A stretch of DNA of 64,000 nucleotides from Hirudinaria manillensis (Eukaryota > Annelida > Clitellata > Hirudinida > Hirudinidae). Both the position numbers and the translations under genes were made by a program. Where the stretch lies: assembly GCA_034509925.1 (NCBI GenBank), contig CM067527.1:5747001-5811000 (forward strand), written 5' to 3'. Positions 23,829 to 26,800 of the stretch are shown one piece after another (the first letter of the stretch is position 1; each line of letters starts with the position of its first letter). The notes beneath the pieces were generated by a model that worked only from the letters and a program-made list of their open reading frames with translations, was not told the origin of the DNA and made no database searches.

Positions 23829-26800
23829 TCAAACCACGGCAGTGTGAACGGCAGTCGGTCGTAGACTTAGGGCGACCGTGTTGGCGGCGTAGGGACCGGT
23901 GGTCACTTGGAATTCCCCGGTGGAGTTGATCTTCTCCTCCCTGGGATTGAAGCCGAGGTTTTTGCGTTGGAGAAACATGTGTATCTCTCGGAAGGTGGGC
24001 CTCAAACTCGCGTCTTTGTTCCAGCATTCTTTCATCAAGTCGTAGATCTCCCTCGGACAGCAAACCGGTTGCTGCGGGACTATCGCTCCGAAACCGCCGC
24101 CGCTGCCGTTACTACCTCCGCTGCTGCCGCCGGCGGCATCGACCACCGGGGTCTCCTCCCTCCTGGCCAGGCACTCCATGTTCTCTATGACCTCCTCGTC
24201 GTCCAATGCCGACAGGGGCAACTCTTCGGCTAGAGTTAGGATCTCCCACATGGTCACACCGAAGGACCAAACGTCGCTTTTGGTCGAGTAGCGACTCTGG
24301 ATTGCACATATTTATCACAATTAAGATATTATTAAATTATTGTAACTATTTTAATAATAATATTATTATTATTCTAATCACTAATTTATTCTAATATCAT
24401 CCACCACCATGAACTGCCAACCAACCAGAATCAACGCCTCCCAAGCCATCCATCTGATTGGCAGAGCTTCTAGTCTCCCAGGCACGGAGCAATAGTCCCT
24501 GGTGTAGGGCCCAATCTTGGTCATGTCGAGGTCTGTCACCTTGACCTTCAGTCCTTCGTCCACGAGGCAATTCCTCGAGGCCAAATCCCCGTGCACGATG
24601 TTCAGTTGTTCCAGGTGTTTCATTCCCGAGGCTATCTGGGAGGCCATGAAGATGAGGCTGCCGTACCTTTGGGGACAAAAGGATGGAGGTGATGATGACG
24701 AAGACGACGACGATGATGATGAGGGTGCTGACCGAAGAGGTGAAATGGATTTTAATCCGTGATCGTCAACTCACGATAAGCAGCCCTGGTGAGTGTGCGG
24801 GTCATTCTGGTCCTGCGAGGCTTCGAGCAGATGCCCGTTGAGGAAGCTGCGCAGGTCCCCGTACCTGGTGTATTCGGTCACCACCAACCAGGGATCGTCG
24901 GTCGACACCACCCCCAGCATCCTGACCAAGTTAGGGTCGTTCAGACGCGAAGACTTTTGGACCTCTGCCTCAAAGTTTAATCTGTTGATTTTGTTTTTGA
25001 TTTTGATGTCGTGGTTGACGGATATTGATTGATCCAAAGGAGGCTTGACATCGAGGAAGTTAAGCACGAATTGATGCAAACAAATGCTTGGCGAAGATGA
25101 TGACAACGTACATTAACTCGGGGTCTGCAATTATGGCGCCACGTAAATGCCCGTCGTTTTTAAGACGTCATCAGGCTCAATAATTCATATATAATTCACC
25201 ACAAAAGAGCGCACCATTGGCCACTTTTTGAGATCATTTTTAGATATTTTCAAAGAAATTGTCTTTGTACTTTGTATGTGTACGCATAAGAGTAGTACAA
25301 TATTACTGTACAGTAGAGAATCGAATTGCAAAGAAAAAAAACACAAGAGATCTTTTGTTACTTGTAAGTTGCTTCATTAATCTTGTCAGCCAACGAAACG
25401 TGACATAAAAATATGGCTGCCTAAGAACGGTTACATAAAAATGCAAATCAACAGATGTCGCGCTATTAACGGACTTGGACGTTTCTTCTTTCTGTTCCTT
25501 CGTACATTCACGTCCAACGAGAGTACAGACGGATCTGGTACGATACAATACAATGTTATCCTTTTTATTTTCTTTTAACGAGCACTTTACACGGGGAATC
25601 GTCTGCTAGGATCAAAAGTAATTTCGTAAATTTACTGCAAAGAAAGTCTTGGATGCACGGGTTTCAACAGGAGACCGTCGACAAGAAAGTCGAGCATAAA
25701 TCAGTCATTCATCGGATCGATGCCTCGTTATTACAAGCAGACTGAACGGAGTCTGTTACGCAATTGGAGTCATTTCTCCTCCATGCTTTCCACTCATCCG
25801 TTATGACGGTTTATGAGCTCACAAAGAGCAAACCTCTTTGTCATTTGCATTTCGATGTAAACACACGAGCGGGTGGTCTTAAATAATGATTAATATCAAT
25901 CGAGTCCTTCATTGGATCTTTTTTTTTATCTTTTAAAATGTTATTTTTTGTTTTTGCTTTTGAGTAGATGAAGCAGGGAATCACCCGTTGATTCTCCCGC
26001 TTTCAATGAATGCCGTCGAACTTTTACGGCATGAAGACTAATTACAAAACTAATTACCAGTAAATGATTACAAGTTGCATTCATTAAAATAAGGACTTTG
26101 CTTTGCAAACTTAACTTCATTTACTTAACTAAGTATGGAAGTTATTAAGGTTTGTGTGAATGTTCGTACGGATGTTTGTACGGTTGTACGTGAAATGTAC
26201 GTGATATGTACGTGAAATGTACGTGATATGTACGTGAAATGTACGTGATATGTACGTGAAAATGTTCGCGTGTTCGCGTTCAAAGGGGAGGCCAAAGATG
26301 GCATCCGAGTGAACTTTCCATCTCAGTAAAAAGCATTGCAGGCATTCAAGCGATCACCAACTAGGTCGTCGAAAGAACTGGGTCGCGTTAAATCGAAATT
26401 CAGGTCAGGGCAAACGACACGGACCAGTTGAGGCATTCTTCAGGCCGCTTCTACTTAACGGGCAATTAAAGAGGAAGACCAAAAAGAGAAAGAAGAAAGT
26501 AACCTTGGAAATTCCGAAAGTTTTTCGTGGGAATAGAAAAACTAATTGGAAACAGTAGCGGGTCATGCTTCGTTGCAACGACCAATTGGGACGAGGGTTG
26601 CAGGGAATTCATTTTCCTACACGTTTCCGGCTTTTTAAAGAATTTTTATTTATTTATTTTTAGTTTGAAATTTCTTTTAATTTTCTTTTCATTCGAGGAC
26701 TGTTGAAATTTGAGTGCTCGCAAAATCTGGCGTTGTTTAAATTTAAATCCTATTTTAAAACGACTCCGAGGCGCACATTTTGTCGAGGCAGAAATATTTG

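What the first reader, a model, noticed from the sequence alone, without database searches (positions are those of the whole stretch)
24426..25043. DDR-like receptor with HRD to HGD and DFG to DLD: atypical or regulatory-only kinase
Seen directly: catalytic loop [11 protein letters not shown] and metal motif TDLDMTKIG in an otherwise well-conserved kinase with intact glycine loop, probable beta-3 Lys, alpha-C Glu and WMAWE motif. Known: DDR1/2 have HRDLATRN and DFG. The catalytic Asp, Asn and metal-binding Asp remain, so this is not a simple dead pseudokinase, but loss of the HRD Arg and of the DFG Phe-Gly removes the usual coupling to the phosphorylated activation loop. The second Tyr of the DYY pair is also Cys. 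Inference: the receptor may signal weakly, constitutively, or by scaffolding.
Basis: partly seen in the sequence, partly recalled or inferred. Interest (0 to 1): 0.78.

Follow-up and report, generated by a model that had tools for sequence, protein, structure and literature searches.

The report
Leech collagen-receptor family with eroded kinases
The odd kinase is real: it belongs to one of about twelve collagen-receptor-type genes found in a leech genome, none of whose ten detected kinases keeps the textbook DFG motif, and two gene pairs seem to have copied just the exon carrying the active site from one another.

Summary
Minus-strand exon 24666-24426 encodes HGDLASRN and DLD in a DDR-type receptor tyrosine kinase; five exons, four GT-AG introns, give an open kinase domain and tail. 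A DDR-specific DS-like domain (3.8e-44) completes the DDR architecture. Assembly statistics match the buffalo leech Hirudinaria manillensis.

The genome gave ten DDR-type kinase exons plus two DDR-like receptors without a detected kinase. DFG is present in 0 of 10, against 29 of 32 readable control rows. The series runs from HRD/DLG to a clear pseudokinase. Two inverted pairs, each about 76 kb apart, share only the catalytic exon at 95-96% DNA identity while neighbouring exons are strongly diverged: gene conversion. In the pair carrying HGD/DLA, 10 of 12 changed codons are synonymous.

Most likely the window gene is an intact, atypical, weakly active DDR paralogue; activity, expression and other species were not tested. 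New variant of a known kind.

The parts
46450..46547 (-). Probable first discoidin (F5/8C) exon, [19 protein letters not shown]...; ends approximate
   Evidence: tblastn with a DDR discoidin query typed from recall, E 0.005
44913..45311 (-). Region of two further discoidin exons ([25 protein letters not shown]... and [30 protein letters not shown]) with an intron between; ends approximate
   Evidence: same tblastn, E 3.3e-10; Pfam F5/8C 0.0017, 18.9 bits, below its cut-off
40387..40551 (-). Last discoidin exon (...[30 protein letters not shown]); ends approximate
   Evidence: same tblastn, E 6.4e-16
32562..33271 (-). DS-like domain exon; upper end approximate
   Evidence: Pfam PF21114 DDR1-2_DS-like, 3.8e-44, 151 bits; genome search
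30829..31100 (-). Exon with a hydrophobic, probably transmembrane segment ([23 protein letters not shown]); ends approximate
   Evidence: read by eye in frame 31158-30790; no predictor run
29092..29530 (-). Juxtamembrane and glycine-loop exon (GEGSFGE); upper end approximate
   Evidence: donor GTCATT
28229..28350 (-). Beta-2/beta-3 exon with the beta-3 Lys (VLGLVK; LVKT at 28269-28258)
   Evidence: acceptor ctttctttccag, donor GTTGGG
24775..24981 (-). Alpha-C to hinge exon (LNFEAEV...; alpha-C Glu)
   Evidence: donor GTGAGT
24426..24666 (-). Catalytic exon: [21 protein letters not shown]
23829..24296 (-). C-lobe exon with a Gly/Ser-rich insert, C-terminal tail and stop

Best explanation
The window holds an intact discoidin-domain-receptor paralogue of a leech, at least 22 kb long, one member of a DDR family that has multiplied and whose kinase motifs have drifted. 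Shown: the architecture, the open spliced kinase frame, the retained Lys-Glu-Asp-Asn-Asp set, HRD to HGD and DFG to DLD, and non-DFG motifs in all ten DDR-type kinases found. Inferred: Leu in place of the DFG Phe still fills the hydrophobic spine and the metal Asp is present, so the domain probably binds ATP-Mg and transfers phosphate weakly, with less dependence on activation-loop phosphorylation and a poorer DFG-out state than human DDR1. It most likely signals in dimers or clusters together with sister receptors, some of which are pseudokinases or have no detected kinase.
For: DDR anatomy. Four GT-AG introns and an open frame through five kinase exons to a stop. Lys-Glu spacing as in DDR2. 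A sister pair with HGD/DLA shows 10 synonymous of 12 changed codons over the whole catalytic exon, P 1.7e-5 to 1.2e-4 under neutrality, so an exon with a non-RD, non-DFG site can be under purifying selection. The HRD Arg is dispensable in Src64 (passages).
Against: In p38, changing the DFG Phe to Ala, Arg or Gly abolished activity and to Tyr left 1% (passage). DFG Gly to Asp is a drastic change and I found no active example. Human RTKs with HKD plus DLG (ROR1, ROR2) are listed as pseudokinases (table passage). The selection test comes from sister genes, not the window gene, and its changes lie outside the HGD and DLA letters. HGD also occurs in non-DDR kinases here (L011, L012, L099), so it is not a DDR-specific adaptation. 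No expression data.
Confidence: 0.5

Rival explanations
1. Functional pseudokinase: catalytically dead or nearly so, kept as an allosteric or scaffolding partner for sister receptors.
For: DFG Gly to Asp; the sister gene L019 has lost catalytic Asp and Asn (HGSLSCRA) and L005 the metal Asp. Kinase-pseudokinase receptor pairing is known in C. elegans (OLD-1/FLOR-1, passages), and kinase-dead EFR still activates BAK1 in plants (abstract).
Against: Lys, Glu, HxD Asp, Asn and metal Asp are all present in the window gene, unlike in L019 and L005.
Confidence: 0.3
2. An ordinary active DDR in which HGD and DLD make little difference.
For: HRD Arg loss can be silent; all five catalytic residues are kept.
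Against: DLD changes two residues of a motif kept in 29 of 32 control rows, and the second Tyr of the activation-loop pair is Cys.
Confidence: 0.13
3. A decaying pseudogene, or base errors in the assembly.
For: No transcript evidence was available here; each residue change needs only one base.
Against: Open frame and GT-AG introns across the kinase exons, and conserved ectodomain exons; ten sister exons with comparable changes; reported assembly quality 33.53 (passage).
Confidence: 0.07

Closest known systems
Human DDR1 and DDR2
   Same: Discoidin, DS-like domain, long juxtamembrane stretch and tyrosine kinase; closest solved kinases
   Different: HRD and DFG in human DDRs, HGD and DLD here; Gly/Ser-rich insert in the C-lobe; activation-loop YY is YC; two genes in vertebrates (passage), about twelve loci here
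Human receptor pseudokinases ROR1, ROR2, RYK, PTK7
   Same: Receptor tyrosine kinases with altered HRD (HKD) and altered DFG (DLG, DNA, ALG) (table passage)
   Different: Other ectodomains; here the Arg is replaced by Gly and the whole family of one animal lacks DFG
C. elegans KIN-16 family (OLD-1, FLOR-1)
   Same: Lineage-specific receptor kinases in which an active member works with a pseudokinase (passages of PMC10523662)
   Different: Not DDRs; in the leech, pairing is only a hypothesis
Plant non-RD receptor kinase EFR
   Same: Receptor kinase lacking the HRD Arg whose kinase-dead form still activates its partner BAK1 (abstract of PMC11259431)
   Different: Unrelated receptor; an analogy of mechanism only

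Membership tests
Discoidin domain receptor (DDR) | DDR-specific DS-like domain | tested here: met
   PF21114, 151 bits against a cut-off of 27
Discoidin domain receptor (DDR) | N-terminal discoidin (F5/8C) domain | tested here: inconclusive
   Pfam match on one exon is below the cut-off (18.9 against 28.2 bits); tblastn with a recalled DDR query finds four discoidin-like stretches in order (E 6.4e-16, 3.3e-10 over two exons, 0.005)
Discoidin domain receptor (DDR) | Kinase domain closest to DDR1/DDR2 | tested here: met
   1.8e-73 to DDR2/DDR1; next family in the list 8.6e-53
Discoidin domain receptor (DDR) | Transmembrane segment between DS-like domain and kinase | tested here: inconclusive
   Hydrophobic stretch read by eye only
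Discoidin domain receptor (DDR) | Activation by triple-helical collagen | not testable with these tools
   Needs a binding and signalling assay; for invertebrate DDRs in general it was unknown in 2013 (passage)
Canonical active protein kinase | beta-3 Lys, alpha-C Glu, HxD Asp, catalytic Asn, metal Asp | tested here: met
   All present in the spliced frame
Canonical active protein kinase | HRD Arg and DFG Phe and Gly | tested here: not met
   HGD and DLD
Pseudokinase | Loss of a residue essential for ATP, metal or catalysis | tested here: not met
   None of the five is lost in the window gene
Pseudokinase | No phosphotransfer activity | not testable with these tools
   Needs an enzyme assay

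The most novel reading that the evidence does not exclude
A whole receptor family in one animal has given up the canonical DFG motif and works as a mixed set of weak kinases, pseudokinases and kinase-less receptors through hetero-association. Its active-site exon behaves as a cassette copied by gene conversion between inverted genes about 76 kb apart, so that both members of a pair share one catalytic style while the neighbouring kinase exons diverge.
Probability: 0.2. Interest if true: 0.75.

Novelty: new variant of a known kind. Interest (0 to 1): 0.52.

Why it matters
Vertebrates have two DDRs (passage). A leech set of about twelve DDR-type loci, none of whose ten detected kinases has DFG, is a natural series of motif losses inside one receptor family. 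It could show which kinase residues a collagen-receptor-type kinase can lose, in what order, and whether non-catalytic signalling takes over. DDR1 binds imatinib in a DFG-out form with stacking on the DFG Phe (passages), so these variants predict weaker binding of that inhibitor type. Gene conversion confined to the catalytic exon would be an unusual way for two genes to keep one atypical active site in common.

Tried and rejected
Beta-3 Lys in VKPPLDQ (about 25035): rejected; a better exon with correct Lys-Glu spacing lies at 28350-28229.

A second catalytic exon in the same gene: the genome search lists one place in the window region.

A canonical DDR elsewhere in the genome: L020 (C11:1057466) is 62% identical to the DDR2 piece and has HRD/DFG, but its best solved relatives are Trk receptors (TrkB 1.2e-25, DDR1 8e-20), so I do not count it as a DDR. 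L004, counted as DDR-type by kinase only, is closest to DDR2 (5.8e-26, TrkA 5.6e-19).

Tree of DDR-type kinases: mostly unresolved. Common origin of HGD in the window gene and L006/L007 could not be shown; L019 groups with L006/L007 at 91/93. L002 and L003 are identical in the catalytic exon, are not joined in the C-lobe tree, and join at 97/95 when both parts are combined.

Relatives outside this genome: none in the one genome-contig scan. Viral contigs was not scanned. No other annelid genome was available, so the expansion is undated.

Literature: leech + receptor tyrosine kinase + discoidin gave 3 papers, unrelated by their listing. Further searches showed only the top of longer lists: 12 of 466, 10 of 50, 10 of 153, 20 of 56, 20 of 103, 20 of 268. 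Nothing listed is about a leech DDR family, but the unlisted papers were not seen. Of papers opened, I saw passages or an outline with abstract only, never whole texts. In PMC10087013 (leech genomes) 'discoidin' and 'tyrosine kinase' occur 0 times; PMC7191736 mentions DDRs only in passing.

Structure prediction was not run: I expected a spliced protein not to count as read letter for letter from the window, and did not try.

A figure corrected on checking: one search gave P for 1 of 11 changes, which wrongly included a donor codon; searches give the right counts. My notebook entry of 10:1 is the same slip.

Full report
What is there. On the minus strand, exon 24666-24426 reads ...[80 protein letters not shown]. 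Apart from a double-kinase EGFR chain whose two weaker stretches add up, its best PDB matches are DDR2 and DDR1. Five kinase exons joined across four GT-AG introns give one open frame to a stop at 23829. The spliced 329 residues score 1.8e-73 to a DDR2/DDR1 chain, 8.6e-53 to the double EGFR chain and 1.2e-46 to TrkA, and 2.3e-65 to the Pfam tyrosine kinase.

The beta-3 lysine. A separate exon at 28350-28229, after a strong acceptor (ctttctttccag), encodes VYVCDVLQ...[17 protein letters not shown]. Joined to LNFEAEV it puts Glu 17 residues after Lys, as in the DDR2 sequence. All five catalytic residues are kept.

Ectodomain. A DDR-specific DS-like domain lies at about 33271-32562 (151 bits). 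Discoidin-like exons lie between 46547 and 40387 (query typed from recall; Pfam sees one exon, below its cut-off). A hydrophobic segment near 31000 was read by eye. By the residues named in a review (Trp52, Thr56, Asp69, Arg105, Glu113, Asn175, Cys73-Cys177; passages), and placing them by recalled human sequence, the leech domain seems to keep Arg105, Glu113 and both Cys but not Trp52 or Asn175. Collagen recognition may therefore differ; this is tentative.

Which animal. G000 has 148,429,096 bases in 23 contigs, with C1 14,755,599, C6 11,463,318 and C13 8,303,845 bases. The HiFi assembly of Hirudinaria manillensis has 22 scaffolds of 148.59 Mb plus a mitochondrial genome, the 13 longest 14.76 to 8.30 Mb, N50 11.46 Mb, Merqury 33.53 (passages of PMC10671345). 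One hirudin-family match over its cut-off, with a stop in the matched frame, agrees with a leech. The species is an inference from these numbers.

The family. Searches with the exon and a DDR2 piece give ten DDR-type kinase exons. Their states: window HGD/DLD; L002 and L003 HRD/DLG; L004 HRD/DVA; L005 HRD/HVA; L006 and L007 HGD/DLA; L008 HRD/DFS; L009 HRD/DMG, read across two exons; L019 HGS with the catalytic Asn replaced by Ala, DFV. A DS-like match over the cut-off lies upstream on the same strand in seven (window, L003, L005, L007, L008, L009, L019), below the cut-off for L006, none for L002 and L004. For those two, F5/8C matches upstream on the same strand stay below the cut-off; they are called DDR-type on kinase similarity (for L004, DDR2 5.8e-26 against TrkA 5.6e-19). 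Two further loci, C12:4.79 Mb and C2:9.08 Mb, have a DS-like domain and a hydrophobic segment but no convincing kinase match in the 7 kb fetched for each and none near them in the genome searches. A kinase too diverged, or further away, is not excluded. The searches score only the best candidates, so numbers are lower bounds.

N-lobes. A beta-3 Lys was found for the window gene, L002, L003, L005 and L009; an alpha-C Glu for the window gene, L002 (weak match), L003, L005, L007, L008 and L009; L006 has Gln there. L002's glycine loop reads GASPFG. Nothing was found for L004 and L019.

Control. From I took every non-DDR row with E up to 1e-6 whose match spans both motifs: 33 rows, 25 fetched and 8 held already. 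DFG could be read in 32 (L013's exon ends before it) and is present in 29; the exceptions are L093, L099 and L016. The HRD Arg is present in 31 of 33 (Lys in L093, Gly in L099). DDR-type: DFG 0 of 10, Arg 6 of 10. Fisher P is 1.9e-7 and 0.020; counting each conversion pair once, 2.1e-6 and 0.043. Two cautions. The DDR2 query itself carries DFG, which favours DFG in the control. The E cut left out L011 and L012, both HGD; L012 lacks DFG and L011 has it in the next exon. So the DFG loss is strikingly family-wide, while HGD is not special to DDRs.

Gene conversion. L002/L003 (C13, opposite strands, 76,136 bases apart) share one block of 303 bases at 96.0%; L006/L007 (C3, opposite strands, 76,834 apart) one block of 236 bases at 95.3%. 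In that blastn search no other part of the 3.2 kb loci of either pair aligns. The blocks are the catalytic exon with short flanks. Neighbouring exons are far older: C-lobe 51 of 97 and 39 of 85 identical residues, alpha-C to hinge 12 of 46 and 13 of 41. Copying of only the catalytic exon is the simplest reading; strong selection on that exon alone would not explain the near-identical intron flank of L002/L003. Over the whole exon, L002/L003 differ at 3 synonymous and 0 non-synonymous codons, L006/L007 at 10 and 2; the latter has P 1.7e-5 to 1.2e-4 under neutrality. Without the edge codons it is 9 and 1. The changes lie outside the identical stretch with HGD and DLA, so this shows constraint on the exon, not on those letters alone. 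The window gene has no such partner in the listed hits.

How it probably works. Src64 with HRD Arg-to-Cys had wild-type activity; c-Src with the Arg mutated kept 10% and 50%; the loop Arg has the major role in Src-family kinases (passages of PMC3223231). Here that loop position is Lys. Leu at the DFG Phe can still fill the spine (recalled), though in p38 other substitutions of that Phe abolished or nearly abolished activity. DDR1 holds imatinib in a DFG-out form with stacking on Phe785 and a loop Arg789-Asp708 contact (passages of PMC4058747), which DLD should disturb. I expect weak, less switch-like activity and signalling together with sister receptors. Receptor kinase-pseudokinase pairs are known in C. 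elegans (passages), and a kinase-dead non-RD receptor still activates a partner in plants (abstract). Both are analogies.

Limits. No expression data, no second species, no assay; a weak tree. Names of domains by eye and the recalled sequences are marked above.

Noticed in passing
L002/L003 (C13:361333 and 437469) and L006/L007 (C3:9364301 and 9441135): Two inverted DDR-type gene pairs on different contigs, both about 76 kb apart, in which only the catalytic exon and short flanks are 95-96% identical. The similar distances may be coincidence.
   Followed up: yes
L070 (C12:4790301-4797300) and L071 (C2:9070301-9077300): DS-like domain and hydrophobic segment followed by a long low-complexity tail, with no convincing kinase match in the 7 kb fetched.
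   Followed up: partly
L019 (C6:180089-180346): DDR-type kinase with HGSLSCRA and DFV: catalytic Asp and Asn both gone, a clear pseudokinase by sequence.
   Followed up: partly
L011 (C4:5835322), L012 (C1:14591316), L099 (C2:4456351-4456563): Non-DDR kinase exons that also carry HGD in place of HRD.
   Followed up: no
L006, about positions 822-884, minus strand: Weak beta-3-like match (IVAVKML, E 0.33) downstream of L006's C-lobe exon; a neighbouring kinase gene or chance.
   Followed up: no
window 17539-19849, minus strand: Repeated short motif (DIKLSLACEPLDDKTTHRVDFIRWPL, EYHPPEGPFEGCTMYRSEFI) reminiscent of microtubule-stabiliser repeat proteins; name recalled, not tested.
   Followed up: no
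window 39107-39686, 42121-42453, 38014-38361: Long simple repeats whose frames read THSLTHSL, poly-Asp/Met and HPSIHPSI, inside introns of the receptor gene.
   Followed up: no
G000:C4:12249547-12249618: The only hirudin-family match reported, with a stop codon in the matched frame; used only as a leech marker.
   Followed up: no
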